NCBI RefSeq assembly: GCF_029537375.1 | Contig: NZ_CP120679.1 | Location: forward strand, 742,001 to 806,000 | DNA: 64,000 nt | Source of the DNA: Bacillus sp. HSf4 | GTDB lineage: Bacteria > Bacillota > Bacilli > Bacillales > Bacillaceae | Reading direction: 5' to 3' | Part shown: piece by piece, positions 10,562-23,607 of the stretch | Numbering within the stretch: position 1 is the stretch's first letter | How the letters are laid out: every line of letters starts with the position of its first letter | Translations under genes and position numbers: made by a program | Notes under the pieces: model-generated | Told to the model about the DNA's origin: nothing | Seen by the model: only the letters and a program-made list of their open reading frames with translations | Databases searched by the model: none

Positions 10562-12787
10562 ATGAGGACCGGTAGACAATACAGCCGGGTCGGTTTGCTG
10601 TTTTTTTATGTATTAACGTTTATGCTGCTTTGGGAATGGCTCCGTCCCTTGCAATACTTTACGGATACGGGGCATACGTACTTTTTCATTTTATTTATCG
10701 CTCTTGTTTTTTCGCTTACATTTTTCAGGGTCTCATGGTTTATCAGATTTCCGGTCAGCCTCGGATTTATTTTGTTTGCCCTTCATTGGATTTTTTACGA
10801 CGGATCTTTATTTTCGCCTTCGTGGATCACGCTGTTTCTGCAAGACATCGGCCGGAATCTTTCCCACATCTTCTCCGGGATGTGGCGGGATATGTCGCCG
10901 TTGTTTCGGACGCTTCTCTTTTACATTTTGCTTTGGCTGCTTGTGTATTTGCTGCATTATTGGGTCATTTATCAGCGCCGAATTCTTTTCTTTTTTATGA
11001 TGACCGTCGTTTATATCGCGGTTATCGACACGTTTACGCCGTTTGACGCCTCAGGGGCGATCGTGCGGATCGTTTTGTTCGGCTTTCTTTTATTGGGACT
11101 CCTTTATTTTGAACGAATGAGGGAAGGTGAAAGGCTGCAAACCTCGAAAACGGTGTTTTTAAAATGGTTTGCCCCGCTGCTGCTTTTGACTGCCGCCTGT
11201 GTGGGCATCGGGACGGTGGCACCCAAGACAGATCCAGTATGGCCTGACCCGGTGCCATTCATCAAAACGGCTGCAAACGGCGGTCTTGATTCGCCGGGAA
11301 AGAGCAGAGTCGGCTATGGCACAAATGATGAAGCATTGGGCGGCCCATTTTCTAAAGATGATTCTTGGGTATTTACATGGCAGGGAACGGAAAGAAGCTA
11401 CTTCAGGGCGGAAACGAAAAGCCATTATACAGGGAAAGGTTGGATTGAAGATGAGAAATCGGGTTCATCCATCCAGCTCGATCTGGACAGGCTTGATTAT
11501 CAATGGTTTGAAAAAAATGTGAAAACAGAGACACACAAAGCGGTTATCGATATGGAGCCTTCTTACCGGTATAACCATGTTCTTTATCCGATCGGGACGA
11601 CGCATATCACCTTAAACAACTTTTTTGTTCCGCTGCATATGAACGAAAACACGGAGAAAATCGTCCCGGCCGGCAAGACGGGGGCTGATGTTCAGAATCT
11701 TGAAAGCTATACATTAACCTATAAAGCACCCATTTTTGATGTGAACAAGCTTAAACAAGTCACGATCGAATCGGAGAAGGAGTGGAGCAGCAGCCATGAA
11801 AAGTACCTTCAGCTTCCCGACACACTTCCTGACCGGGTGAAAGATCTCGCCGGGAAGCTAACAAAGGATCAAGATAATGTCTATGACAAAGCAAAAGCGA
11901 TTGAAGACTATCTCGGTTCTTCCGAATTTAGGTATGATACAAAAGACGTTGCCGTGCCGAACAAGGATCAGGACTATGTCGATCAGTTTTTATTTGAAAC
12001 GAAAATCGGCTATTGCGACAATTTTTCAACGGCCATGGCGGTTCTCCTTCGTTCGGCCGGAATACCCGCGCGCTGGGTGAAAGGCTATACATCCGGACAG
12101 TACGCCGGAGCGACAGCCGACCGGAAACGCAATATGTATGAAGTGACAAACAATAATGCCCACTCCTGGGTCGAAGTATATTTTCAAGGGCAGGGCTGGG
12201 TGACATTTGAACCGACGAAAGGTTTTGTCAACCCTGAGCATTTCATCGAACAGTCGAACGGCCATAGCGGCGCCGCAGCAGAAAAAAAGGAAGAAGAACG
12301 AGAAAATGCCGCAGATGAACAGCAGCAGACCGCCAAAAAACAGGAAAGCCCGCAAAAAAACGACCAGAAGGAAAAACATAAAGAAGCTCAAGCCGATTCA
12401 GGTGCCGCCAACAGCGGCAATAACAGCGTTCTCTTATACAGTGCAGCGGCTCTTTTTCTCCTGTTGGCACTTGCGGCCGGTTTGTACTATACACGTTCCA
12501 AATGGATGCCGGTCATCATCATCGCCAGGCTGAAAAAACGGCGCGATGACGCGGTTTTCTTCAAAGCATATGAGGAGCTTATCCGCCAGCTGCAGCGGAA
12601 AGGCATCATCAAGCAGGAAGGGCAGACCCTCCGCGAGTTCGCGAAAGCGGTGGATGAGCGCTCAGGCAATCATGATATGACGGCTTTAACCCTTCGTTAT
12701 GAACGGGCCCTGTATCGCAAGGAAAATGCAGGAGAACTTTGGAATGAGTCAGCGGAGTTATGGGAAAATTTAATTAAAAGGAGATAG
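10562..12787 (+). CDS. yebA: Transglutaminase-like membrane protein with DUF4129 tail
   Basis: 741 residues from the ATG at 10562, which follows GAGGTGA at proper spacing; a GTG at 10553 is also in frame but has no ribosome binding site. The first about 220 residues hold six membrane helices. An outside domain carries the transglutaminase/protease core: the Cys is in IGYCDNFSTAMAVLLRSAGI, then NNAHSWVEVYF with the His, and FEPTKGF. A very polar Glu/Lys/Gln-rich linker (about residues 558-612) precedes a last membrane helix (LLYSAAALFLLLALAAGLYY), and a cytoplasmic DUF4129 domain ends the protein. Length is like B. subtilis YebA. It is the third gene of the yeaC-yeaD-yebA operon. Confidence 0.9.
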   Translation: MRTGRQYSRVGLLFFYVLTFMLLWEWLRPLQYFTDTGHTYFFILFIALVFSLTFFRVSWFIRFPVSLGFILFALHWIFYDGSLFSPSWITLFLQDIGRNLSHIFSGMWRDMSPLFRTLLFYILLWLLVYLLHYWVIYQRRILFFFMMTVVYIAVIDTFTPFDASGAIVRIVLFGFLLLGLLYFERMREGERLQTSKTVFLKWFAPLLLLTAACVGIGTVAPKTDPVWPDPVPFIKTAANGGLDSPGKSRVGYGTNDEALGGPFSKDDSWVFTWQGTERSYFRAETKSHYTGKGWIEDEKSGSSIQLDLDRLDYQWFEKNVKTETHKAVIDMEPSYRYNHVLYPIGTTHITLNNFFVPLHMNENTEKIVPAGKTGADVQNLESYTLTYKAPIFDVNKLKQVTIESEKEWSSSHEKYLQLPDTLPDRVKDLAGKLTKDQDNVYDKAKAIEDYLGSSEFRYDTKDVAVPNKDQDYVDQFLFETKIGYCDNFSTAMAVLLRSAGIPARWVKGYTSGQYAGATADRKRNMYEVTNNNAHSWVEVYFQGQGWVTFEPTKGFVNPEHFIEQSNGHSGAAAEKKEEERENAADEQQQTAKKQESPQKNDQKEKHKEAQADSGAANSGNNSVLLYSAAALFLLLALAAGLYYTRSKWMPVIIIARLKKRRDDAVFFKAYEELIRQLQRKGIIKQEGQTLREFAKAVDERSGNHDMTALTLRYERALYRKENAGELWNESAELWENLIKRR

Positions 12788-12789
12788 TC

Positions 12790-12818
12790 TTGACCGCTTT
12801 CTGTCCTATTGTTAGAAT
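12790..12818 (+). promoter_or_regulatory. Sigma-A promoter of guaA
   Basis: TTGACC (12790-12795), 17-base spacer, TAGAAT (12813-12818). It lies directly after the yebA stop and gives a 5' leader of about 138 bases. Confidence 0.7.
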
Positions 12819-12824
12819 AAGTGA

Positions 12825-12962
12825 ATATTAAAAACCCTTATATATACTTGCTGGCAGGCTCGGCTGCGCCCCGAGCCTTAGTCCCGCGAATGGGGGCAGG
12901 ACGGCCATATGTCTGCCGCCATTTTTTCTGTGCAAAAAACAATTTGATAAAGAGGTGACACC
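12825..12962 (+). ncRNA. Structured 5' leader of guaA with an intrinsic terminator (candidate riboswitch/attenuator)
   Basis: The leader holds a perfect 8-bp hairpin (AGGCTCGG 12856-12863 with CCGAGCCT 12871-12878). A second hairpin spans 12891-12921: TGG/CCA, a G-G mismatch, GGCAG/CTGCC, a bulged G, and AC/GT, followed by six T (12922-12927). That is an intrinsic terminator in front of a gene. A second GGCAG (12853-12857) could pair with the same CTGCC (12913-12917) and so prevent the terminator. It does not match the purine riboswitch consensus. I recall that candidate structured RNAs upstream of guaA have been reported in comparative surveys; I cannot say whether this is one. Confidence 0.6.
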
Positions 12963-14504
12963 ATGACGAAATTAGTAAATGAAATGATTCTTGTATTGGA
13001 TTTTGGAAGTCAGTATAATCAGCTGATTACCCGCCGCATTCGTGAGTTTGGTGTATACAGTGAGCTTCATCCGCATACGTTGACGGCAGAAGAAATCAAG
13101 GAAATGAATCCGAAAGGAATTATTTTGTCCGGGGGGCCGAACAGCGTTTATGATGAAGGATCATTCCGCTGCGACGAGAAGATTTTTGACCTGGATATCC
13201 CTGTTCTCGGCATCTGCTACGGCATGCAGCTGATGACTCATTACCTCGGCGGAAAAGTTGAGGCGGCAAGTCAGCGTGAATACGGAAAAGCGAACATTCA
13301 CATTGAAGGTGAACCAGACCTGTTCAAAGATCTTCCAAACGAACAAGTCGTCTGGATGAGTCATGGTGATTTAGTTGTCGAAGTTCCAGAAGGCTTTACT
13401 GTTGATGCGACAAGCCATCACTGCCCGAATTCAGCGATGAGCAAGAAGGATAAGAAATGGTACGGTGTTCAGTTCCATCCGGAAGTGCGCCATTCGGAAT
13501 ACGGAAATGATCTGTTGAAAAACTTCGTTTTCGGTGTTTGTGAATGTGCCGGAGAATGGTCAATGGAAAACTTCATTGAAATTGAAATGCAAAAGATCCG
13601 CGAAACAGTCGGCGACAAGCAAGTGCTGTGCGCGCTAAGCGGCGGTGTCGATTCATCCGTTGTTGCGGTGTTGATCCATAAAGCGATCGGCGATCAGCTG
13701 ACTTGTATTTTCGTCGACCACGGACTTCTTCGCAAAGGTGAAGCCGACGGCGTCATGAAAACATTCAGTGAAGGCTTCAACATGAACGTGATTAAAGTTG
13801 ATGCGAAAGACCGCTTCCTGAACAAGCTGAAAGGTGTTTCAGACCCTGAGCAAAAACGCAAAATCATCGGCAATGAATTTATCTATGTGTTTGATGATGA
13901 AGCGGACAAGCTGAAAGGGATCGATTTCCTTGCACAGGGAACGCTTTACACAGACATCATCGAAAGCGGCACCGCGACGGCGCAGACGATCAAGTCGCAC
14001 CACAATGTCGGCGGACTGCCGGAAGACATGCAGTTTCAACTGATCGAACCGCTGAACACCTTGTTTAAAGATGAGGTGCGCGCGCTTGGAACAGAGCTCG
14101 GCATTCCTGATGAGATCGTTTGGCGCCAGCCGTTCCCAGGCCCGGGTCTCGGCATCCGCGTTTTGGGAGAGGTAACGGAAGAAAAACTGGAAATCGTCCG
14201 TGAATCTGATGCGATTCTTCGCGAAGAAATCGCAAAAGCTGATCTTGAAAAAGATATTTGGCAATACTTCACGGTCCTTCCTGACATCCGCAGCGTCGGC
14301 GTCATGGGAGACGCAAGAACTTATGACTATACGATCGGTATTCGCGCCGTGACATCGATTGACGGCATGACATCCGACTGGGCGAGAATTCCTTGGGATG
14401 TCCTTGAGACAATCTCGACACGGATCGTCAATGAAGTGAAGCACATTAACCGCGTTGTCTACGATGTTACGAGCAAGCCGCCTGCGACAATTGAGTGGGA
14501 ATAA
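12963..14504 (+). CDS. guaA: GMP synthase (glutamine-hydrolysing)
   Basis: 513 residues, exactly the family length. It converts XMP, ATP and glutamine to GMP in the cytoplasm, the last step of guanine nucleotide synthesis. The N-terminal class I glutaminase has nucleophile Cys85 in GICYGMQ and the His/Glu pair in 'VQFHPEVRH'. The ATP-pyrophosphatase part has the P-loop LSGGVDSS near residue 225, and the C-terminal dimerisation domain ends 'PPATIEWE'. AAAGAGGTGA precedes the ATG. It has its own promoter, structured leader and terminator. In B. subtilis pbuG follows directly; here a foreign-looking cluster lies in between. Confidence 0.99.
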
Positions 14505-14506
14505 TG

Positions 14507-14549
14507 AAAAAAGCCTCAAATCTTTTTATAAAGATTTGAGGCTTTTTTT
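14507..14549 (+). terminator. Strong terminator after guaA
   Basis: GCCTCAAATCTTT pairs with AAAGATTTGAGGC (14513-14542), with six A before and seven T after. Confidence 0.95.
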
Positions 14550-14861
14550 ATAAAACATATTAAACGAATAAACTGTTACATCCCTAGTTTTCACCAGCCT
14601 GCATCATCTATTCATTTGTCAAATAAAATCGAATTCATAAAATATTCATTTAATTACAAATAATGTATGATAGTATAAATATATACAATTTAAAGTAGAT
14701 AGTGTTTTTAATTTTTCAAGGGGTTCTTTGTTAGATAAGAATGATAAAAAATGATGCCCTCAATAATGTTGAGCGTCATTTTTTACCTTCTGCATTCAGT
14801 GCTTCAGGTTCAGGATAAGGTTTTTGAAATGGAGAAAAAAATACTGAAAGAGGCTCAAAGG
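14550..14861 (+). promoter_or_regulatory. A+T-rich promoter and leader region of the phosphonate cluster
   Basis: About 310 bases, visibly A+T-rich. Around 14651-14690 there are several -35/-10 candidates, for example TTAATT with an 18-base spacer and TATAAA, so the exact promoter is unclear. A terminator-like hairpin (14746-14784, listed separately) lies between this promoter zone and the first gene. The ribosome binding site AAAGAGG is at 14848-14854. Confidence 0.45.
14746..14784 (+). terminator. Terminator-like hairpin in the leader of the cluster (possible attenuator)
   Basis: AAAAAATGA (14746-14754) pairs perfectly with TCATTTTTT (14776-14784), then an asymmetric internal loop, then CTCAA with TTGAG. 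The 3' arm supplies six T. It lies about 80 bases before the first gene and downstream of the probable promoter. Confidence 0.5.
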
Positions 14862-16124
14862 ATGAACAAACATATTTTATTTTTTAATGCTACTTATATT
14901 AAGAAAATTTCTACTCTTGAGACTGCTAAAGACTTAGGCTTAAAGGTTTCTGTTGTTGGGCCAGAACTTCCAGGTTGGTCGCACCCGTTGGTTGATCATT
15001 ACATTTGCGCAAATACTTATCAGATGGATGAGACCATACCTGTTCTGAAGGAAGCGGCCAAAGAAAATCCTTTTGACGGAGTCATTACATTTTGGGATAG
15101 AGATGTGGTGCCTGTGGCGGTGACTGCCGAAGAATTTAACCTGAAGGGCAGTCCGGTGGAAGCGGCGGAACGGGCCCGGAATAAATGGAAGATGCGTCAT
15201 TGTTTAAACCATGCACAAGTTCCGCATCCAAATTATCACAGGTTTACAAATTGGAACGAATTATATCATGCCAGCGTTGAGATGGAATACCCCTTAATCA
15301 TTAAGCCTGTGGGTGCTTCTGCAAGCAAAGGCGTGTTCCGAATAGAAAAGCCGGAAGATTTATATCACGCCTATCAGGACATGTTAAACGCTGCGATTCC
15401 AGAAAATGATAAAATGTTTTCTTTTTATCAAAACGAGTATCTGGTTGAAGAGTTTATGAATGGACAAGAAGTCAGCATTGAGGGAGTAATTTCCGATGGA
15501 GTCATTCACTTTGCAGGTGTTACAGAAAAATGGACGGATCGGTATTTCGAAGAATACCAGCATGCATTTCCCGCCAGGCTGTCGGAAGATGTCGAACGTG
15601 AATTGTTCAATATCACCAGTGATGGGATAAAAGCTTTGGGGCTGGATCATTGTGGTTTTCATGCCGAGATCATGATCACAGAAAAAGGATGTAAGATTAT
15701 AGAGATCAATGGTCGTCTAGGTGGCGACTTTATTACTACACATTTGGTTCCTCTAGCCAAAGGTATAGATATAACACGCGCAAACCTATTGGCGGTATTA
15801 GGAGAAAAAATAAGCTTTGTAGCTTCGAAAAGAAGAGCTGCCTGCGTCCGATTTTTGATTGCAGACCGTGAGGGTGTGATAGAAAAGTGGGAAGGTGTTG
15901 AATCGATCAAAGACATGCCTGGGGTCGTTGAATTTGTTTTAGAAAAACAACAGGGCGATAATGTTGGCCTGCCGCCTGAAAAATTTCATGATTCCCGGAT
16001 TGCTTATGTCATCACAGAAGCCGAGGATACAGAAAAAGCGATCACATATGCTGAAGATGCTTTATCCAAAGTGAGGTGTTTCATCAATGGAACGGAAGAG
16101 ACTGTTCCTGGTCGGGATTCCTGA
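14862..16124 (+). CDS. ATP-grasp ligase A of the phosphonate cluster
   Basis: 420 residues from the ATG at 14862, eight bases after AAAGAGG; an in-frame ATG at 14829 is possible. The order of parts is that of ATP-grasp carboxylate-amine ligases: a Rossmann-like N-terminal part (NKHILFFNATYIKK), the ATP-binding lysine in LIIKPVGASASKG (Lys148), the hinge 'YLVEEFMNGQEVSIEGV' (193-209), and the Mg2+-binding EINGRLGGDF (Glu281, Asn283). Such enzymes activate a carboxylate as acyl phosphate and join it to an amine, often making dipeptides (BacD/L-amino-acid ligase type). The gene overlaps ligase B by 38 bases and lies upstream of a PEP mutase, so I infer that it links phosphonoalanine to an amino acid or extends the peptide. 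Donor and acceptor cannot be read from sequence. Confidence 0.85.
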   Translation: MNKHILFFNATYIKKISTLETAKDLGLKVSVVGPELPGWSHPLVDHYICANTYQMDETIPVLKEAAKENPFDGVITFWDRDVVPVAVTAEEFNLKGSPVEAAERARNKWKMRHCLNHAQVPHPNYHRFTNWNELYHASVEMEYPLIIKPVGASASKGVFRIEKPEDLYHAYQDMLNAAIPENDKMFSFYQNEYLVEEFMNGQEVSIEGVISDGVIHFAGVTEKWTDRYFEEYQHAFPARLSEDVERELFNITSDGIKALGLDHCGFHAEIMITEKGCKIIEINGRLGGDFITTHLVPLAKGIDITRANLLAVLGEKISFVASKRRAACVRFLIADREGVIEKWEGVESIKDMPGVVEFVLEKQQGDNVGLPPEKFHDSRIAYVITEAEDTEKAITYAEDALSKVRCFINGTEETVPGRDS

Positions 16125-17355
16125 AACACATATCGAAAGGGCCATTAAGCGGGCTAAGCAACTTGGTTTTGACGTCATATTGGGAGATACAGAAGCTTCA
16201 TTGAAAAATTATGAGCATTTAATAAAGGAAGCTGATCAAAAAATCGTTTTAGATTATACGAATGATGAGAATCTGTTCTCAGTCGCCAAAGAGATCCATG
16301 ACAAAGAGCCATTAGATGCCATATTTACTTTCAAAGAAGCCGGTTTATTCAATGTATCTAAACTTCAGCAAGCCTTTCATTTGAAAGGAAATCCTCCGTC
16401 TGTGGTACAAGCTTGTCTTGATAAATATAAAACGCGGCAGCTTTTAAAAAAGGCGGGACTATGCTCTCCTGGTTTTAAATTGTGCAGGAATGTGGAAGAA
16501 GTATATGATTTTTGGCACAAATCTGAACATCCTATCATTTTAAAGCCGAGATCTCGGCAAGGTAGTGTGGGTGTTATTAAAGTTGAGAAACAAGAAGACA
16601 TAGAGGCGTGTTTTAAAGAATGTTCAAAGCATGACGATGAGGAATCAATATTAGCTGAAGAGTTTATAGAAGGACAGGAAATTTCTATAGAAGCCGTTGT
16701 CTGCCAAGGCAAGGTCGGAATATTTGGTGTAACCGAAAAGCAGCTTTATCCTGGAACGTTCGTGGAATTGGGGCACATATCGCCTTATCAAGGTCAAAAA
16801 AAATATCAGGACTTTTATAAGGATCTGGTCATGGAAGTCGTTCATGCTGTTGGGATCGTATTTGGCCCCTTGCATATTGAGGGATATCACACAAATAAAG
16901 GATTTGTGGTAGGTGAGGTGCACACCCGCTATGGCGGAGACAACATAGTGACCATAACCGAAATCGCCATGAAATGTGATATGCACACACCTATTTTTGC
17001 TGAACTGGCGGGCGTCCCATATCAACCGGAAAGTAAGCTTGCCCAAAATGAAGTGTGCGCCGTTCGCTTTTTAGAAACGAATCAAGGGGTTGTAAGCGCG
17101 ATCGAAGGACTAGGTGAGCTGAAAAGGATGGGGAATTTAGTCGATTTTCATATAAATTGCAATGTTGGTGATACGATCGGGCCGATCAAAAACAGCTACG
17201 ATAGAGCAGGATGGGTGATTGTAAAGGGGAAAAATGAGCGAGAAGTCAATGACGCATTACATAATGCGGTTGACAAGATAAAAATAATCATAGGTGAAGG
17301 GGAGAATGATGATGAGAAACAGAAAATCAGCTATTTTGAGGAACGCTTTAAATAG
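16087..17355 (+). CDS. ATP-grasp ligase B of the phosphonate cluster
   Basis: 422 residues. It begins inside the end of ligase A, after GAGGTG, so the two are translationally coupled. The two proteins share the same plan but are clearly different. The ATP-binding lysine is in IILKPRSRQGSVGV (Lys153), the hinge is 'ILAEEFIEGQEISIEAVV' (188-205), and the metal-binding segment is 'VVGEVHTRYGGDNIV'. In the last, the usual E-x-N triad residue is His (E277-V-H279), as in a subset of carboxylate-amine ligases. I infer a second peptide-bond-forming step. Two ligases suggest a tripeptide, or one ligase for each side of the phosphono amino acid. Function is inferred from the cluster. Confidence 0.83.
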   Translation: MERKRLFLVGIPETHIERAIKRAKQLGFDVILGDTEASLKNYEHLIKEADQKIVLDYTNDENLFSVAKEIHDKEPLDAIFTFKEAGLFNVSKLQQAFHLKGNPPSVVQACLDKYKTRQLLKKAGLCSPGFKLCRNVEEVYDFWHKSEHPIILKPRSRQGSVGVIKVEKQEDIEACFKECSKHDDEESILAEEFIEGQEISIEAVVCQGKVGIFGVTEKQLYPGTFVELGHISPYQGQKKYQDFYKDLVMEVVHAVGIVFGPLHIEGYHTNKGFVVGEVHTRYGGDNIVTITEIAMKCDMHTPIFAELAGVPYQPESKLAQNEVCAVRFLETNQGVVSAIEGLGELKRMGNLVDFHINCNVGDTIGPIKNSYDRAGWVIVKGKNEREVNDALHNAVDKIKIIIGEGENDDEKQKISYFEERFK

Positions 17356-18196
17356 TCAAGGATTGGTGAAAGTAGCGGGAGCTCATGACGGCTTAAGCGC
17401 TAAATTAGCAGAGAAAAACGGATTTAATGCCATATGGGCAAGCGGTTTGGGAATCTCTGCTGTGCAAACTGTACCTGATGCCAGTATATTAACGATGACT
17501 GAATTTCTTGAAGCTGCCGTTATTATGAATGAATCATGCAATTTGCCGGTCATAGCAGACTGTGATTCTGGATACGGGAATATTCATAATGTCACCCGCA
17601 TGATCAAAAAATATGAAGCTGCCGGTATTGCCGGGGTTTGTATTGAAGATAAAGTATATCCGAAATTAAATTCATTTGACGATAGACAACAGCTTCTTGT
17701 CAGTACTGAAGAATTTTGCGAAAAAATTAGAGCCGCAAAGATGGCTCAGCAAAATGACGATTTTGTATTGATTGCGCGTGTCGAAGCTTTAATTGCTAAA
17801 TTGGGTCAAGAAGAAGCTTATACAAGAGCAAAAGCATATGTTCAAGCGGGAGCAGATGCGATTTTAATTCATTCAAAAGAACAATCGCCTGATGAGATTA
17901 TTGAATTTGTTAACAATTGGGATGTTGATGCACCGTTGGTTGTGGTTCCGACTAAATATCCGACGCTCTCAATGGAACAGTTGGAGGAATTGGGAGTGAA
18001 GGTTTCCATCTATGCCAATCAGGCTTTGCGTGCTTCTGTTAAGGCTATAAATGATACATTCGAAAGCATTATTAACAATAAATCTTCTTTGCAGGTTGAA
18101 GAAGACATAGTGAGTGTCAAGGAAATATTTGATATTCAAGACGTACCGGGGATGAAGCAGCTCGAGCGTTTGATCCATAAACAGCCGGCTACTTAA
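17312..18196 (+). CDS. pepM: Phosphoenolpyruvate mutase (PEP phosphomutase)
   Basis: 294 residues from the third of three consecutive ATGs (17312), seven bases after GGGGAG; the earlier ATGs are too close to it. It belongs to the isocitrate lyase/PEP mutase superfamily. The residues that mark true PEP mutases are present: 'GAHDGLSAKLAEKNGFNAIW' (23-42), ASGLGISA, the metal-binding DCDSGYGN (83-90) and, decisively, EDK-x5-NS (Glu112-Asp113-Lys114, Asn120-Ser121). PEP mutase converts phosphoenolpyruvate to phosphonopyruvate, forming the C-P bond that starts nearly all phosphonate biosynthesis. The reaction strongly favours PEP, so a pulling step is needed; the next gene is an aminotransferase and no decarboxylase is present. 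It overlaps ligase B by 44 bases. Confidence 0.93.
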   Translation: MRNRKSAILRNALNSQGLVKVAGAHDGLSAKLAEKNGFNAIWASGLGISAVQTVPDASILTMTEFLEAAVIMNESCNLPVIADCDSGYGNIHNVTRMIKKYEAAGIAGVCIEDKVYPKLNSFDDRQQLLVSTEEFCEKIRAAKMAQQNDDFVLIARVEALIAKLGQEEAYTRAKAYVQAGADAILIHSKEQSPDEIIEFVNNWDVDAPLVVVPTKYPTLSMEQLEELGVKVSIYANQALRASVKAINDTFESIINNKSSLQVEEDIVSVKEIFDIQDVPGMKQLERLIHKQPAT

Positions 18197-18252
18197 GGTT
18201 TTCTATTCTGACTTTTTAGCATGTCCATATATAAGAACTGGAGGTGTTCCGA

Positions 18253-19452
18253 TTGAATAAAAGATTATCTGACAGAGTCATGAATATCAAACCTTCGGCT
18301 ACAATGTCATTAAATGCCAAAACGAAAATGATGATAAAAGAAGGTAAAGATATGATTAATATGAGTGTAGGTGAACCGGATCTTCAGCCGCCATTAAAAG
18401 CTTCACATGCAGGAATCCAAGCGATAGTGAATGGCCAAACCGGATATACACCGGCAACAGGACTGATTGAATTAAGAGCATCCATTGCACAATACTTGTT
18501 GCATGAACGTGGAATTAAGTACAGTCCGAATCAAATTATTGCATCAGCCGGGGGAAAACAGCCGTTATATAATGTTTTTCAAGCAATTTGTGATCAAGGT
18601 GATGAAGTGGTTCTCCCATCCCCTTACTGGGTGTCTTATCCAGAGCAAATCAAACTGTCGGGAGCAGTGACTGTAATTGTAAGATGTGATGAAACGACTG
18701 ATTTTAAAATGACGCCGGAGAAGCTTGCAGCAGCGATTTCCCCTAAAACAAAAGCTGTCGTTATTACATCTCCTAATAATCCGACAGGGTCCGTTTATTC
18801 TGAAGACGAATTGAAAGAGATCGGAAATGTGTTAAAGGATTATAAGAACATTTTTATTATTTCTGATGAGATCTACGATCAGTTTGTGTACGAGGGCAAG
18901 CATGTCAGCTTGCCGTTCCTTTTTCCCGAATTACAAGACCGGACTATCTTAACGAATGGTTTTTCTAAAGTGTTTGCAATGACTGGATGGCGGCTTGGAT
19001 ATATCGCTGCCCCGGCGGATATAGCAGAAGCAATTGCCAGCTTTCAAAGCCATGCTACAGGTAGCCCGTCAACGATTTCTCAATATGCGGGCATAGCGGC
19101 TTTAAACGGTTTTGATCAGTCTCTGGTCGAAGAATACAAAAAGAGACGTGATCTGTTGGTCGAGGGTTTAAATCATATTCAGGGTATCCGCTGTGCCAAA
19201 CCAAATGGGGCCTTTTATGCATTTCCGAATGTTTCGCGATTTATCGGAACAACATATGAAGATCAAACAATCGTTGATGCGGAGACATTTTGCCATCTGC
19301 TGCTGGAAAAACAGCATGTTTCAGCTGTTCCCGGTACAGCATTTGGAGAGCGTAATAACATCCGCTTGAATTTTGCAATTCCAAAGGATCTTATTACAGA
19401 AGCGTTGAAAAGAATAAAGAACTTTACAACTCAGCTGGCCATTAAGGTATAA
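18253..19452 (+). CDS. Class I PLP aminotransferase, proposed phosphonopyruvate transaminase
   Basis: 399 residues from a TTG at 18253, six bases after TGGAGGTG; a GTG at 18244 lies within that site. It is an aspartate-aminotransferase-like fold type I enzyme: 'SVGEPDLQPP' (38-47), GYTPATG (64-70), SPNNPTG (173-179), SDEIYDQ (204-210), and Lys239 for PLP in GFSKVFAMTGWRLGY. The C-terminal 'NNIRLNFAI' holds the Arg that binds the alpha-carboxylate. By family it transfers an amino group to a 2-oxo acid. Directly after PEP mutase, the likely substrate is phosphonopyruvate, giving phosphonoalanine (3-phosphonoalanine, an aspartate analogue). A decarboxylase as in 2-aminoethylphosphonate routes is absent. 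A general aspartate or aromatic aminotransferase role cannot be excluded. Confidence 0.85.
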   Translation: MNKRLSDRVMNIKPSATMSLNAKTKMMIKEGKDMINMSVGEPDLQPPLKASHAGIQAIVNGQTGYTPATGLIELRASIAQYLLHERGIKYSPNQIIASAGGKQPLYNVFQAICDQGDEVVLPSPYWVSYPEQIKLSGAVTVIVRCDETTDFKMTPEKLAAAISPKTKAVVITSPNNPTGSVYSEDELKEIGNVLKDYKNIFIISDEIYDQFVYEGKHVSLPFLFPELQDRTILTNGFSKVFAMTGWRLGYIAAPADIAEAIASFQSHATGSPSTISQYAGIAALNGFDQSLVEEYKKRRDLLVEGLNHIQGIRCAKPNGAFYAFPNVSRFIGTTYEDQTIVDAETFCHLLLEKQHVSAVPGTAFGERNNIRLNFAIPKDLITEALKRIKNFTTQLAIKV

Positions 19453-19517
19453 CAGGCCGGCATCCAAAACACTCCTTCTAATCAGCACCTAATGTTCAGG
19501 CAGGTGGTTTTTTTAAA

Positions 19518-20745
19518 ATGAAACAATTCAGGATTCATTCGGTGGGCTGGAATATCATTTTGGGAACATTGTTTAGCAGAATGTCAGTTTCAATGAGCAT
19601 TCCTTTCCTTTCTATATTACCTTACACAAGTCAAAGGTGTATCTCCAGCTTTGACCGGCATCATTGTATCGGTAAGTTCTCTGGCTGGGATTGTAATGAG
19701 CTTTTACGGAGGCTATTTATCGGATCTTTTTGGCAGAAAAATTGTGATGATAACATCTGTATTTTGTTGGGCATTTGTTTTTGTGAGCTTTGTTTTTGCG
19801 GATAGTGTACTTGCATTTTTTGTCATCAATGTGCTTAACGGGCTGTGCCAATCAATCTTTGAACCGGCATCTAGAGCCTTGTTATCAGATATAAGCAAAG
19901 AAGAAAACCGTTTGAAGATGTTTAATTTGCGATATACTGCGATCAATATAGGCGTGGTTTTTGGACCGCTTATAGGCCTTCGTCTGGGAGCCGCCAAAAC
20001 GGCTCTCCCTTTTCTGATCGCAGGTCTTACATATTTTCTTTACGGTCTGTCCCTCATATTTTCATTTCGGAAATTTAACATAGGTGAGAATAACCGAAAA
20101 GAAGATAAAACGACGATTGCTACGGCTTTTCATGTGATAAGAAAAGACAAAGTGTTTCTTATCACATTATTTGGAGTGATTTTATCAATATCCGGATACG
20201 CACATTTTTCCACAACATTGCCCCAATATTTTGCCGCAAAAATGGAGGATGGGGTGACCGTATTTTCATGGCTTTTGGTTCTGAATGCAATTGTTGTTTT
20301 GCTCGTTCAATATCCGATTGTGAATACCATGAAAAAGTTTCCGCCGATTCATTCAATTATTCTGGGGAATATATTGATTAGTTTCAGTTTATTATTCTTT
20401 TCATTTTCAGTTAATCCAGTCATATGGGGTATTATCGTTATATTTTTCACAATAGGGGAAGTTTTGATTTTTTCAATGGTTGATATGTTGGTGGATGAAA
20501 TTGCAAAACCAGGTTTAAAAGGAACATATTTTGGGGCAACAGGCTTTAACCGTTTAGGAAATGTGATTGGCCCATGGCTGGGCGGTTTTCTTCTTTCCTA
20601 TTTTGGGGTGAACGGGTCTATTTATATATTCTTCATCTTGTTTGTAACGACAGCCTCGGGAATTCCAGCTTTATTTTTGGCCAAAAAGCATCTTGATCAG
20701 AGCAGACGTTCAAATGCCGATGTTACAGAATCACATAGAATGTAA
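19518..20745 (+). pseudogene. MFS exporter of the cluster, frameshifted near residue 33
   Basis: A major facilitator protein split over two frames. The first frame starts at the ATG 19518 after AGGCAGGTGG and encodes the first helix up to 'SIPFLSI'. The second frame continues the family sequence with 'YLTQVKGVSPALTGIIVS' from 19615-19668 and runs to 20745. The shift lies at TATATTACC (about 19612-19621): removing one T gives a continuous frame of 408 residues, and the total length (1228 bases) is exactly one base more than a multiple of three. The second part has the MFS loop motif GYLSDLFGRK and about eleven further helices. A TTG at 19651 could start a product lacking helix 1. It would export the phosphonate product. 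Either a real inactivating insertion or a sequence error. Confidence 0.85.
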
Positions 20746-20750
20746 AATGA

Positions 20751-20782
20751 AGTCTTTAAACATTGGTTTAAAGGCTTTTTTT
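20751..20782 (+). terminator. Terminator after the phosphonate cluster
   Basis: AGTCTTTAAAC (20751-20761) pairs with GTTTAAAGGCT (20766-20776, with a G-T type mismatch), followed by seven T. Confidence 0.8.
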
Positions 20783-20998
20783 CTTGGAACACCAAGAAAG
20801 TGGAAAATGAAATTGATTCTTCGTGAGACAGGAAGGATATTTTCACTGACGGCAAAGAGGTTACCATTTATCTTATTCGGATAAGACTCTGTTAATTTTA
20901 AAAGAATAGCTTTAAACCGTTTGGTAAACAGTCTAAAGCGCTTTTGGTCTGTTCTGGCTTTTTTTATGATAACAAGTACATCGGTAAGAATATGGAAA
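20783..20998. other. Non-coding stretch between the cluster terminator and the pbuG control region
   Basis: No convincing gene. A second, weaker hairpin with GCTTTA (about 20909) and TAAAGC (about 20933), a nested GTTT/AAAC stem and a TTTT run follows. It may be an older terminator left over from the junction. Confidence 0.35.
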
Positions 20999-21042
20999 AA
21001 TAGCGAACGAAGAGAATATTATTTGTATTAATGTTCGTTTTT
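20999..21042 (+). promoter_or_regulatory. PurBox pair (PurR operator) of pbuG
   Basis: AATAGCGAACGAA (20999-21011) and inverted AATGTTCGTTTTT (21030-21042) fit the PurBox consensus around the CGAAC/GTTCG core, with an 18-base gap. The same gap, and nearly the same distance to the -35 element, is seen upstream of purE. In B. subtilis pbuG belongs to the PurR regulon. Confidence 0.65.
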
Positions 21043-21046
21043 TGTA

Positions 21047-21075
21047 TTGTGTTCCGCGTTAGGTATTGTTACAAT
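21047..21075 (+). promoter_or_regulatory. Promoter of pbuG
   Basis: TTGTGT (21047-21052), 17-base spacer, TACAAT (21070-21075), five bases downstream of the second PurBox. Confidence 0.55.
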
Positions 21076-21097
21076 AGTATAGTAATTCAAAAAAGAC

Positions 21098-21253
21098 TTG
21101 TCGTATAATCATGGGGATATGGCCCATAAGTTTCTACCAAGCTACCGTAAATAGCTTGACTACGCTTGTATACACTATTTTGTTCGTGAAAAATACATTT
21201 TTTCAGTATGAAATATGCCGTAGTCAAGCGTCCCGCCAATTGGGGCGTTTTTT
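21098..21253 (+). ncRNA. Guanine riboswitch upstream of pbuG (aptamer 21098-21168 plus terminator)
   Basis: The aptamer has the conserved purine-riboswitch core: TATAATC, GGATATGGCCCATAAGTTTC, ACCGTAAAT and GACTACG. The C in 'GACTA' (position 74 of the xpt aptamer) marks guanine/hypoxanthine specificity. Downstream, CGTCCC (21229-21234) pairs with GGGGCG (21242-21247) before a T run: the terminator. CGTAGTCAAGC (21220-21230) is the exact complement of the aptamer 3' side GCTTGACTACG (about 21153-21163), giving the antiterminator. Guanine binding should therefore stop transcription into pbuG. Confidence 0.96.
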
Positions 21254-21315
21254 GTTTAAATACAAAGCTTTATGAAACAATAAAAACGACAGAAAATCGA
21301 GAGGAGTATACCATT

Positions 21316-22638
21316 TTGAAGCGTTACTTTCAGTTTGAAGAATTGGGTACGAACTATCGGAGAGAAATGATTGGCGGACTCACCACATTTTTGTCCATGG
21401 CATATATTTTGATCGTCAATCCGCTCACACTTTCGCTGGCATCTGTGCAAGACTTTCCCGATGCTTTGCGAATGGATCAAAGCGCCGTTTTCACGGCTAC
21501 GGCTGTTGCGGCGGCCATCGGCTGTTTTGTGATGGGGATATTAGCCAAATATCCGATTGCGCTTGCGCCGGGAATGGGGCTTAACGCGTTCTTTGCTTTT
21601 TCTGTTATTTTAACGATGCAGATTCCATGGCAGACGGCGCTGGCCGGTGTTATGGTTTCCGGTCTTATTTTCATCGTTCTTTCCCTGTCAGGGCTGAGGG
21701 AAAAAATCATCAACTCGATTCCGTATGAGCTGAAAATGGCCGTCGGGGCGGGAATCGGGCTGTTTATCGCTTTCGTTGGTCTGCAAGGTTCAAAAATTAT
21801 CGTTGCCAATCCCGATACAGTGGTAGCTCTTGGAAATATTCATTCAGGCCCTGTTCTGCTGACTGTATTTGGCTTGGTCATTACCGTCATTTTAATGGTC
21901 CTCCGCGTCAATGGCGGGATTTTCTTCGGAATGCTGATCACAGCCGTTGTCGGCATGATGTTTGGCCTGATTGACGTGCCTGAGAAAATCGTTGGCGCTG
22001 TTCCGAGTCTTGCGCCGACATTTGGACAGGCTTTTATGCATCTTCCTGACGTTTTTTCGATCCAGATGCTCGTTGTTATTTTAACGTTTTTATTCGTCGA
22101 CTTTTTTGATACTGCCGGTACATTGGTTGGTGTTGCCTCACAGGCCGGTTTGATGAAAGACAACAAGCTGCCGCGTGCAGGCCGGGCATTGCTTGCCGAT
22201 TCGACTGCGACCGTTGCCGGAGCAATCCTCGGAACGTCGACAACGACGTCATATATCGAATCTAGCGCCGGGGTTGCTGCCGGGGCAAGATCCGGTTTCG
22301 CAGCGGTTGTCACGGGTGTGCTGTTTTTATTGTCGCTGTTCTTTTCACCGGTTCTCAGCGTCATCACTTCGAATGTGACAGCGCCCGCTTTAATCATCGT
22401 CGGTGTGCTGATGGTGGCGAATCTCAATAAAATTGAATGGAGCAGATTTGAAATTGCTGTTCCCGCCTTTTTAACGATGATCGCGATGCCGCTGACTTAC
22501 AGCATCGCCACAGGGATCGCCATCGGATTTATTTTCTATCCGATCACGATGATCATGAAAGGCAAAGCGAAAGACATCCATCCGATTATGTACGGACTGT
22601 TTGTCGTGTTCATCTGTTACTTTATTTTCCTGAAATAA
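21316..22638 (+). CDS. pbuG: Guanine/hypoxanthine permease
   Basis: 440 residues from a TTG at 21316, nine bases after GAGGAG; this gives the length of B. subtilis PbuG. The longer frame from 21208 would run through the riboswitch terminator. It is a nucleobase-cation symporter of the AzgA/NCS2-like family with about 12-14 membrane segments; 'APGMGLNAFFAFSV' and 'FLFVDFFDTAGTLVGVA' are the substrate-site helices of this family. It imports guanine and hypoxanthine for salvage. It is controlled by PurR and by a guanine riboswitch, as seen directly upstream, so it shares its signals with the purine operon 3 kb downstream. Confidence 0.97.
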   Translation: MKRYFQFEELGTNYRREMIGGLTTFLSMAYILIVNPLTLSLASVQDFPDALRMDQSAVFTATAVAAAIGCFVMGILAKYPIALAPGMGLNAFFAFSVILTMQIPWQTALAGVMVSGLIFIVLSLSGLREKIINSIPYELKMAVGAGIGLFIAFVGLQGSKIIVANPDTVVALGNIHSGPVLLTVFGLVITVILMVLRVNGGIFFGMLITAVVGMMFGLIDVPEKIVGAVPSLAPTFGQAFMHLPDVFSIQMLVVILTFLFVDFFDTAGTLVGVASQAGLMKDNKLPRAGRALLADSTATVAGAILGTSTTTSYIESSAGVAAGARSGFAAVVTGVLFLLSLFFSPVLSVITSNVTAPALIIVGVLMVANLNKIEWSRFEIAVPAFLTMIAMPLTYSIATGIAIGFIFYPITMIMKGKAKDIHPIMYGLFVVFICYFIFLK

Positions 22639-22652
22639 AAAGGAAGCGGAAT

Positions 22653-22680
22653 AGCCCTCGTTTACACGGGGGCTTTTTTT
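22653..22680 (+). terminator. Terminator after pbuG
   Basis: AGCCCTCGT pairs with ACGGGGGCT (one G-T pair), loop TTAC, then seven T. Confidence 0.9.
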
Positions 22681-22769
22681 ATGTGGAAAAAAATGAAAAG
22701 TGGAACCTTTGATTCTTGTTTTTCGTCATATATAAAGGCGGCAGCACTTATGATAAGAATGGGTTTGGC

Positions 22770-22798
22770 TTGACTGTTTTAAACAGCTTATGTAATTT
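22770..22798 (+). promoter_or_regulatory. Possible promoter of yebC
   Basis: TTGACT (22770-22775), 17-base spacer, TAATTT (22793-22798). The -35 is good, the -10 weak. Confidence 0.35.
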
Positions 22799-22851
22799 AT
22801 ATAAGTGCTTTTCATTGATGTAAAGCTTTTGAATAGATAGGAGTTGCTTAT

Positions 22852-23607
22852 ATGATTGAAGAACAGCATAAAAGAAATGAAGAAGATATAGAACAAGAAC
22901 CCGCATCACGGATGTCGAGAAATGCGCGGAAGACGAGGAAAAGCAAGGAGCCAAATCCATCGGCGTCAAAAGCCAAAAGGATTCTCCAAAGCGTCATTGC
23001 TGCTTTGTTCCGCTATTTCAGCTTTGTGCTTGATGTCTTGAAATCTCCTGTACGTGCAGCAGATGAGCATGACCGGACTTATTTTAAATATTCCGTTATT
23101 TCGATGATGCTTTTGGCTGTCTTCTTTTCCCTCGGAAACTTTTATCAGCTTCTGGCGGGCAGGGGCAGGGTTCTCGGCTTCGGTGTGAATGTGCCGTTTT
23201 TTGAAGTGTTTTTTGTTGTTTTCCTATACTGCATGATCTTCATGTTCTGGGTGGTCGCGGCCATCTGGGCTGCAGCAAGGTTTATGATGAGGGTTAACAT
23301 CTCTTTTTATGAAACGGCGGCGAAATTCGGTTCTCTTTTAGTACCGTTTATCATACCCGCGGCTTTCTGGATGATTTTTGCGATCATCAATTTTACAACG
23401 ATGACGGTGATTTTGTCGATTTTGATGTTTTTGGGGCTGACATTCGGCGCATTTGTGCTGATTCAATCGGTTTATGAAAAAAGCGATAAAAAGCGGGCGG
23501 ATTTGATGTACTGCGTCTTCGCGGTTTTGCTGATTGAATTGGTATTTGTCGGCGCAACATGGAAATTCATGGCCGGCTATTTGCTGTCATCGCTTATTCC
23601 GGTTTAA
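22852..23607 (+). CDS. yebC: YebC-like integral membrane protein of unknown function
   Basis: 251 residues; start after TAGGAG. The first about 45 residues are very polar (Glu/Arg/Lys-rich, 'RMSRNARKTRKSKEP'), followed by five to six membrane helices between about residues 45 and 250. This matches the position and plan of B. subtilis YebC, an inner-membrane protein without known function. It is not the E. coli YebC transcription factor of the same name. It stands alone between terminators. Confidence 0.8.
   Translation: MIEEQHKRNEEDIEQEPASRMSRNARKTRKSKEPNPSASKAKRILQSVIAALFRYFSFVLDVLKSPVRAADEHDRTYFKYSVISMMLLAVFFSLGNFYQLLAGRGRVLGFGVNVPFFEVFFVVFLYCMIFMFWVVAAIWAAARFMMRVNISFYETAAKFGSLLVPFIIPAAFWMIFAIINFTTMTVILSILMFLGLTFGAFVLIQSVYEKSDKKRADLMYCVFAVLLIELVFVGATWKFMAGYLLSSLIPV

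What the first reader, a model, noticed from the sequence alone, without database searches (positions are those of the whole stretch)
14862..20745. Compact phosphonate biosynthetic cluster (two ATP-grasp ligases, PEP mutase, aminotransferase, MFS) between guaA and pbuG
The sequence shows five co-directional genes with overlaps or short gaps: ligase A (14862-16124), ligase B (16087-17355), PEP mutase (17312-18196), class I aminotransferase (18253-19452) and an MFS exporter (19518-20745). PEP mutase makes the C-P bond. Adjacent ATP-grasp ligases and an exporter are the hallmark of small peptide antibiotics. I infer a phosphonopeptide, most simply one containing phosphonoalanine. As far as I recall, phosphonoalanine peptides have been described from Streptomyces and Bacillus, but this exact gene set and order are not known to me.
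Basis: partly seen in the sequence, partly recalled or inferred. Interest (0 to 1): 0.93.

Follow-up and report, generated by a model that had tools for sequence, protein, structure and literature searches.

The report
Known Bacillus phosphonopeptide antibiotic gene cluster
These five genes are a close copy of a cluster carried by Bacillus velezensis, a species known to make small phosphorus-carbon peptide antibiotics (phosphonoalamides); here the copy sits in another Bacillus and its exporter gene is broken by a reading-frame shift.

Summary
The five co-directional genes are real and lie between guaA and pbuG, with one correction: the exporter is not open from 19518 to 20745. It is split between two frames, while its counterpart in B. 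velezensis is whole. Ligase B runs 19 residues past the B. velezensis one.

The phosphonopeptide reading is well supported but not new. The same five genes, in the same order and at the same guaA-pbuG site, lie in Bacillus velezensis NRRL B-41580 (86-94% protein identity), and in B. swezeyi as far as its contig reaches. B. velezensis is a published source of phosphonoalamides E (Ala-PnAla) and F (Ala-Ala-PnAla) (review passages). PepM identity of 94% exceeds the 80% said to predict similar products. No dedicated phosphonopyruvate decarboxylase was found in the genome, so transamination to phosphonoalanine is the expected step.

Additional observations: the cluster is A+T-rich and differs less from B. 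velezensis at fourfold sites than guaA or pbuG do, so horizontal exchange is likely. The guaA-pbuG gap is variable: 131 to 18,569 bp in 42 of 44 genomes, with restriction genes in some. Production by this strain is untested.

The parts
14862..16124 (+). ATP-grasp L-amino acid ligase A, 420 aa; nearest solved relatives by sequence are the L-amino acid ligase BL00235 and the alanine-anticapsin ligase BacD
   Evidence: Pfam ATP-grasp_4 and LAL_C2; PDB sequence search; 87.9% identical to B. velezensis NRRL B-41580
16087..17355 (+). ATP-grasp L-amino acid ligase B, 422 aa; ends 19 residues later than the 403-aa B. velezensis and B. swezeyi copies (401 aa in Paenibacillus)
   Evidence: Pfam; alignment; 28% identical to ligase A; 85.6% to B. 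velezensis
17294..18196 (+). phosphoenolpyruvate mutase (PepM); 294 aa from ATG 17312, 300 aa from GTG 17294, which gives the 300-aa ORF length seen in B. velezensis and B. swezeyi
   Evidence: PF13714 205.9 bits; TIGR02320 318.9 bits; EDKVYPKLNS stretch; 93.9% to B. velezensis
18253..19452 (+). class I PLP aminotransferase, proposed phosphonopyruvate transaminase
   Evidence: PF00155 250.8 bits; the best-scoring solved chains are mostly aspartate aminotransferases; 86.2% to B. velezensis
19518..19649 (+). 5' part of the MFS exporter gene, in the frame of 19518
   Evidence: translation; 84.6% to B. swezeyi over 39 residues
19651..20745 (+). 3' part of the MFS exporter gene, 364 aa, in another frame
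   Evidence: PF07690 156.2 bits; 88.7% to B. velezensis, where the gene is one frame
14745..14785 (+). leader hairpin followed by a T run, between guaA and ligase A; absent from the B. velezensis leader
   Evidence: fold (whole 211-nt leader z -1.63, 10 of 200 shuffles fold as well, so not significant by itself); alignment
20749..20778 (+). terminator-like hairpin closing the cluster
   Evidence: consensus scan (10 terminator-like sites against 5.1 expected in the region), not evidence of function by itself
12963..14504 (+). guaA, left border
   Evidence: NF000848
21081..21182 (+). purine riboswitch in front of pbuG, right border
   Evidence: Rfam RF00167, 85.2 bits
   Evidence: 75.9% identical gene in the B. 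velezensis locus and 92.9% in the B. swezeyi locus, downstream of the same cluster

Best explanation
This is a phosphonoalamide E/F-type cluster, orthologous to the one in B. velezensis. PepM turns phosphoenolpyruvate into phosphonopyruvate; the aminotransferase draws it off as L-phosphonoalanine; the two ATP-grasp ligases add alanine residues so that phosphonoalanine ends up C-terminal (Ala-PnAla, then Ala-Ala-PnAla); the MFS protein would export the peptide, which target bacteria take up through peptide permeases and cut to release phosphonoalanine. Shown here by sequence: gene identity, order, site and orthology. Inferred: all enzyme activities, the product, and which ligase acts first (I suggest that ligase A, which matches BacD among solved structures while ligase B does not, selects alanine). 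In this strain the exporter gene is frame-shifted, so export would need another transporter, or the locus may be in early decay.
For: Same five genes, order and guaA-pbuG site in B. velezensis NRRL B-41580; same five genes with pbuG downstream in B. swezeyi, whose contig starts after guaA. Protein identities to B. velezensis 87.9, 85.6, 93.9, 86.2 and 88.7%. B. velezensis makes Ala-PnAla and Ala-Ala-PnAla, and Wilson 2023 counted 95 clusters likely to make phosphonoalamides, 95% in Bacillus, as retold in review passages. PepMs of 80% identity or more give similar products, and pepM, transaminase and two ATP-grasp ligases suffice for the Streptomyces pathway in a heterologous host, the transporter gene pnaT being dispensable there (PMC11867202, section 6). 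PepM family evidence. No dedicated phosphonopyruvate decarboxylase in the own genome: best TIGR03297 match 44.7 bits, inside a 645-aa open frame, at the level of B. velezensis and B. swezeyi, against 165 and 107 bits for the two subunit-like ORFs of the rhizocticin-type cluster in G005.
Against: No chemistry exists here for this strain. PepM misses NCBIfam's cut-off by 0.65 bits. The exporter is frame-shifted and ligase B is extended by 19 residues. That NRRL B-41580 is the very strain from which E and F were isolated is recalled; the discovery paper was not held. No Streptomyces Pna sequences were compared directly.
Confidence: 0.87

Rival explanations
1. The cluster is decaying and makes no exported product in this strain: frame changes in the exporter and at the end of ligase B mark relaxed selection.
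For: Exporter split into two frames although whole in B. velezensis and Paenibacillus; ligase B tail altered. guaA and the eight purine-operon proteins scanned match their models over nearly full length, so frame errors are not general in the neighbourhood.
Against: The four biosynthetic genes are open and conserved; a transporter gene is not needed for biosynthesis of the Streptomyces compounds in a heterologous host. A sequencing error cannot be excluded: the database cluster led by the 422-aa ligase B stands for 2 member sequences on 4 contigs, but I did not see whether these share its end, and the exporter could not be checked in other strains.
Confidence: 0.2
2. The product is another phosphonopeptide: same logic, different amino acids, number of residues or position of PnAla.
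For: Ligases differ by 12-14% from the B. velezensis ones, and in Streptomyces such ligases are broad (PMC11867202 passages).
Against: PepM is 94% identical and the gene set is the same; the title of the Bacillus biosynthesis paper, seen only in a reference list, speaks of highly specific amino acid ligation.
Confidence: 0.1
3. [quoted passage not shown]
For: PepM, ATP-grasp ligases and MFS are shared with the L014 cluster of another Bacillus genome (55% PepM identity).
Against: L014 has two ORFs matching halves of the phosphonopyruvate decarboxylase model (105 and 166 bits, both below its cut-off of 312.5, which is for the whole protein) and an aldolase-like ORF; no such ORF is among those listed in the window cluster, the own genome has only weak matches to the decarboxylase model (44.7 bits at best), and the window's aminotransferase found no match at E 1e-8 in L014-L016.
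Confidence: 0.02
4. The PepM homologue acts on methylisocitrate, oxaloacetate or a similar substrate and no phosphonate is made.
For: Same superfamily; the score is 0.65 bits under the PEP mutase cut-off.
Against: Best family is PEP mutase by 51 bits over phosphonopyruvate hydrolase and 130 over PrpB; best solved relatives are PEP mutases with the EDKxxxxxNS stretch; context of ligases and transaminase.
Confidence: 0.02

Closest known systems
Phosphonoalamide E/F cluster of Bacillus velezensis (Wilson et al. 2023, not held; L010 here is strain NRRL B-41580)
   Same: Five genes, order, overlaps and chromosomal site (guaA before, pbuG after); 86-94% protein identity
   Different: In L010 the MFS gene is one frame, ligase B ends at 403 aa, the leader hairpin is missing, and an ECF sigma factor gene with a following 480-aa ORF lies between cluster and pbuG
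Orthologous cluster in Bacillus swezeyi NRRL B-41294 (L009)
   Same: Five genes and order, pbuG downstream; 86-95% protein identity
   Different: 5' and middle parts of the MFS gene in one frame; its end runs into an ambiguous stretch
Paenibacillus forsythiae cluster (L011)
   Same: Same five genes (59-78% identity)
   Different: MFS gene first; no match to guaA or pbuG in the 16.9 kb held
Streptomyces phosphonoalamide cluster pnaABCD
   Same: PepM, transaminase, two ATP-grasp ligases (PMC11867202)
   Different: Products carry N-terminal PnAla, with a broad-range dipeptide ligase; sequences not compared here
Rhizocticin-type cluster (L014; name recalled)
   Same: PepM (55%), ATP-grasp ligases, MFS
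   Different: Decarboxylase-like and aldolase-like ORFs present, no match to the window's aminotransferase

Membership tests
Bacillus phosphonoalamide (E/F) cluster | pepM at least 80% identical to that of a producer (rule quoted in PMC11867202) | tested here: met
   93.9% to B. velezensis NRRL B-41580; that this strain is the producer is recalled
Bacillus phosphonoalamide (E/F) cluster | aminotransferase beside pepM in place of a phosphonopyruvate decarboxylase | tested here: met
   PF00155 at 18253-19452, aspartate-aminotransferase-like; no decarboxylase ORF in the cluster and only weak matches in the genome
Bacillus phosphonoalamide (E/F) cluster | two ATP-grasp ligases beside pepM, co-directional | tested here: met
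   Both with ATP-grasp_4 and LAL_C2 domains, overlapping frames; co-transcription itself not tested
Bacillus phosphonoalamide (E/F) cluster | intact MFS exporter gene | tested here: not met
   Two frames; I do not count it as defining for the product, since pnaT was dispensable in a heterologous host for the Streptomyces pathway
Bacillus phosphonoalamide (E/F) cluster | product is Ala-PnAla and Ala-Ala-PnAla | not testable with these tools
   Needs 31P NMR and LC-MS
PEP mutase (TIGR02320) | score at or above the curated cut-off | tested here: inconclusive
   318.9 against 319.55 bits, just missed, still the best family
PEP mutase (TIGR02320) | EDKxxxxxNS stretch shared by solved PEP mutases (motif recalled) | tested here: met
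   EDKVYPKLNS in the window; EDKRFPKVNS in 5unc and EDKLFPKTNS in 1m1b
Rhizocticin-type cluster | phosphonopyruvate decarboxylase and aldolase genes in the cluster | tested here: not met
   None among the ORFs of 100 aa or more between guaA and pbuG; comparison with L014 and genome search

The most novel reading that the evidence does not exclude
The guaA-pbuG junction is a cargo-exchange site of Bacillus chromosomes where a phosphonopeptide antibiotic cluster and restriction-modification systems are alternative cargoes, moved between species by recombination in the conserved flanks; in this lineage the antibiotic cargo has begun to decay, exporter first, leaving a strain that may make the peptide without its own exporter.
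Probability: 0.35. Interest if true: 0.42.

Novelty: new member of a known kind. Interest (0 to 1): 0.27.

Why it matters
It places a known antibiotic pathway in a further Bacillus genome and suggests how it spreads: the same cluster at the same site in species with quite different flanks. The frame-shifted exporter gives a natural test of whether the MFS protein is needed for export or self-protection in phosphonoalamide producers.

Tried and rejected
Rejected: a rhizocticin-type pathway (no decarboxylase or aldolase ORF in the cluster; only weak decarboxylase-model matches in the genome, where 13 of 14 control genomes also give matches below the cut-off and none of the four genomes searched passes it, not even the one with the rhizocticin-type cluster); PrpB or phosphonopyruvate hydrolase activity (family scores); plasmid carriage (no near match of 14862-20745 in 72,556 plasmid records). 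A regulatory RNA in the leader: Rfam gave only the purine riboswitch at 21081-21182 (12500-23000 searched), and the leader fold is not significant (z -1.63). The promoter scan found 14 sites against 19.7 expected, so it says nothing. Literature: searches of the open library. The two Bacillus phosphonoalamide papers (Wilson 2023; Cui and Ju 2024, ACS Chem Biol) were not held, so I saw them only as citations or as retold in reviews; since the window's species was not determined, I cannot say whether this genome is among the 95 clusters already counted. The strain-name search gave a listing only. Genome searches with ligase B found 3 of 80 genomes in the family and 1 of 397 sampled across the order, the window's own (only 4 candidates per genome were scored in the rows shown, and the B. 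velezensis and B. swezeyi genomes are not among those rows). The organism: a Bacillus of the licheniformis group is my guess from recall of genome sizes and G+C, with B. swezeyi the nearest named relative here; not tested.
Full report
OBSERVATION. Pfam finds ATP-grasp and L-amino acid ligase C-terminal domains in both ligases, PEP_mutase in the third gene, and aminotransferase class I/II in the fourth. The fifth is an MFS gene, but not an intact one: the stated stretch 19518-20745 is out of frame with itself and holds 16 stops. Translation shows the first part in the frame of 19518 and the remaining 364 residues in another frame. Counterparts in B. velezensis (L010, 410 codons) and Paenibacillus forsythiae (L011, 425 codons) are single frames; in B. 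swezeyi (L009) the 5' and middle parts are in one frame, that copy running into an ambiguous stretch near its end. Ligase B also has a changed end: 422 aa against 403, 403 and 401 in the three relatives, with an extra tail in the alignment. The database cluster led by the 422-aa form stands for 2 member sequences on 4 contigs, but whether these share that end was not seen; a sequencing error is therefore not excluded for either change.

IDENTITY OF THE ENZYMES. The PepM scores 318.9 bits with TIGR02320, 0.65 bits below the curated cut-off, against 267.8 for phosphonopyruvate hydrolase and 188.6 for PrpB, both far below their cut-offs. The closest solved chains are PEP mutases (5unc, 1m1b), and the stretch EDKVYPKLNS resembles theirs. 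The aminotransferase is nearest to aspartate aminotransferases, as expected for an enzyme acting on phosphonopyruvate, an analogue of oxaloacetate; PnaA of Streptomyces is described in those terms (PMC11867202, passages). Ligase A matches L-amino acid ligase BL00235 (114.5 bits) and BacD (73.4) best, ligase B the same BL00235 more weakly (74.4 bits); the two ligases are 28% identical. A search of the own genome with the phosphonopyruvate decarboxylase model gave at best 44.7 bits, inside a 645-aa open frame, as in B. velezensis (46.6) and B. swezeyi (44.8); the rhizocticin-type genome G005 gave 165 and 107 bits at two neighbouring places. None of the four passes the cut-off of 312.5.

THE SAME CLUSTER ELSEWHERE. 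A scan of one genome per species with PepM gave 5 loci out of 30 pattern matches (near kin of the window may be left out there): B. swezeyi NRRL B-41294 (95%), B. velezensis NRRL B-41580 (94%), Paenibacillus forsythiae (79%), and two distant MAGs (36-37%). In B. velezensis all five genes lie in the same order with guaA before and pbuG after them; in B. swezeyi all five lie in the same order with pbuG after, and the contig begins after guaA. In Paenibacillus the MFS gene comes first and the neighbours differ. Among 44 genomes of the genus, 6 have a PepM at E 1e-40 or better, three close (95% or more, the window's own included) and three at 55-57%. One of the latter, L014, was looked at: it has the ORFs of a rhizocticin-type cluster (name recalled; decarboxylase-like and aldolase-like matches, ORFs). 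Ligase B at E 1e-60 is in 3 of 80 genomes of the family and in 1 of 397 sampled from the order, the window's own.

WHAT IS ALREADY KNOWN. From passages of open papers: B. velezensis yields phosphonoalamides E and F, a di- and tripeptide of L-alanine with C-terminal L-phosphonoalanine (PMC13306798; PMC13302981); Wilson et al. 2023 counted 95 clusters likely to make phosphonoalamides, 95% in Bacillus (as retold in PMC13302981). For the Streptomyces compounds pepM, transaminase and two ATP-grasp ligases were the only genes needed in a heterologous host, and PepMs of 80% identity or more are said to mean similar products (PMC11867202, sections 4 and 6 read). The original Bacillus papers were not held, so the producing strain is from recall and the ligase order is inference.

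HOW IT WORKS, most likely. PEP to phosphonopyruvate (PepM), to phosphonoalanine (aminotransferase), to Ala-PnAla and Ala-Ala-PnAla (ligases), then export (MFS). The review passage describes uptake by peptide permeases and release of PnAla in the target cell. All steps in this strain are inferred.

MOVEMENT. The cluster has 40.5% G+C against 48.3% and 46.5% in the flanks. At fourfold sites the five cluster genes differ from B. velezensis by 0.22-0.39, but guaA by 0.49, pbuG by 0.58, and the two genes before guaA by 0.65 and 0.58; against B. swezeyi the cluster differs by 0.19-0.28 and four flanking genes by 0.32-0.43. For ligase A, ligase B and PepM the cluster is about as close to the distant host as to the near one (0.22, 0.32, 0.24 against 0.19, 0.28, 0.27); for the aminotransferase (0.39 against 0.20) and MFS (0.35 against 0.26) less so. 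Against this reading, the whole-codon identity of the aminotransferase to B. velezensis (84.5%) is no higher than that of the strongly conserved guaA (85.1%), and base composition may contribute. I think horizontal exchange likely, not proven. The guaA-pbuG gap was measurable in 42 of 44 genomes (in one guaA was not found, in another the genes lie on different contigs): 12 under 1 kb, 7 of 1-3 kb, 23 of 3 kb or more, from 131 to 18,569 bp. Of ten intervals that I chose and fetched, nine were listed for ORFs and nine chosen proteins from five of them were scanned: a type I restriction system in L025, a methylase with a ResIII-type protein in L026, a C5 methylase and a GmrSD-like protein in L028, an integrase core in L024, a phage integrase in L023. 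So the junction is a variable cargo site; what the other long gaps hold was not looked at.

VERDICT. Real, correctly read in essence, and a further member of a published kind. The additions are the broken exporter, the altered ligase B end, and the shared variable site.

Noticed in passing
12963-22638 and L020-L029: The guaA-pbuG junction is a variable cargo site in Bacillus (131 to 18,569 bp in 42 of 44 genomes); of the nine intervals listed for ORFs some hold restriction-modification or integrase genes and some are nearly empty.
   Followed up: partly
14745-14785: A hairpin with a T run lies in the leader between guaA and ligase A; it is missing from the B. velezensis leader. It could be an attenuator or a small insertion.
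   Followed up: partly
16087-17355: Ligase B is 19 residues longer than its 403-aa relatives, with an unrelated tail after the shared end, which lengthens the overlap with pepM.
   Followed up: partly
L010:11748-13714: In B. velezensis an ECF sigma factor gene and a following 480-aa ORF lie between the cluster and pbuG; similar ORF pairs are at the site in L023, L026 and L029, and no ORF of 100 aa or more lies between the cluster and pbuG in the window.
   Followed up: no
L014 (G005), also L015, L016: Three other genomes of the genus carry a 55-57% PepM; L014 has a rhizocticin-type set of ORFs, far from guaA in that genome.
   Followed up: partly
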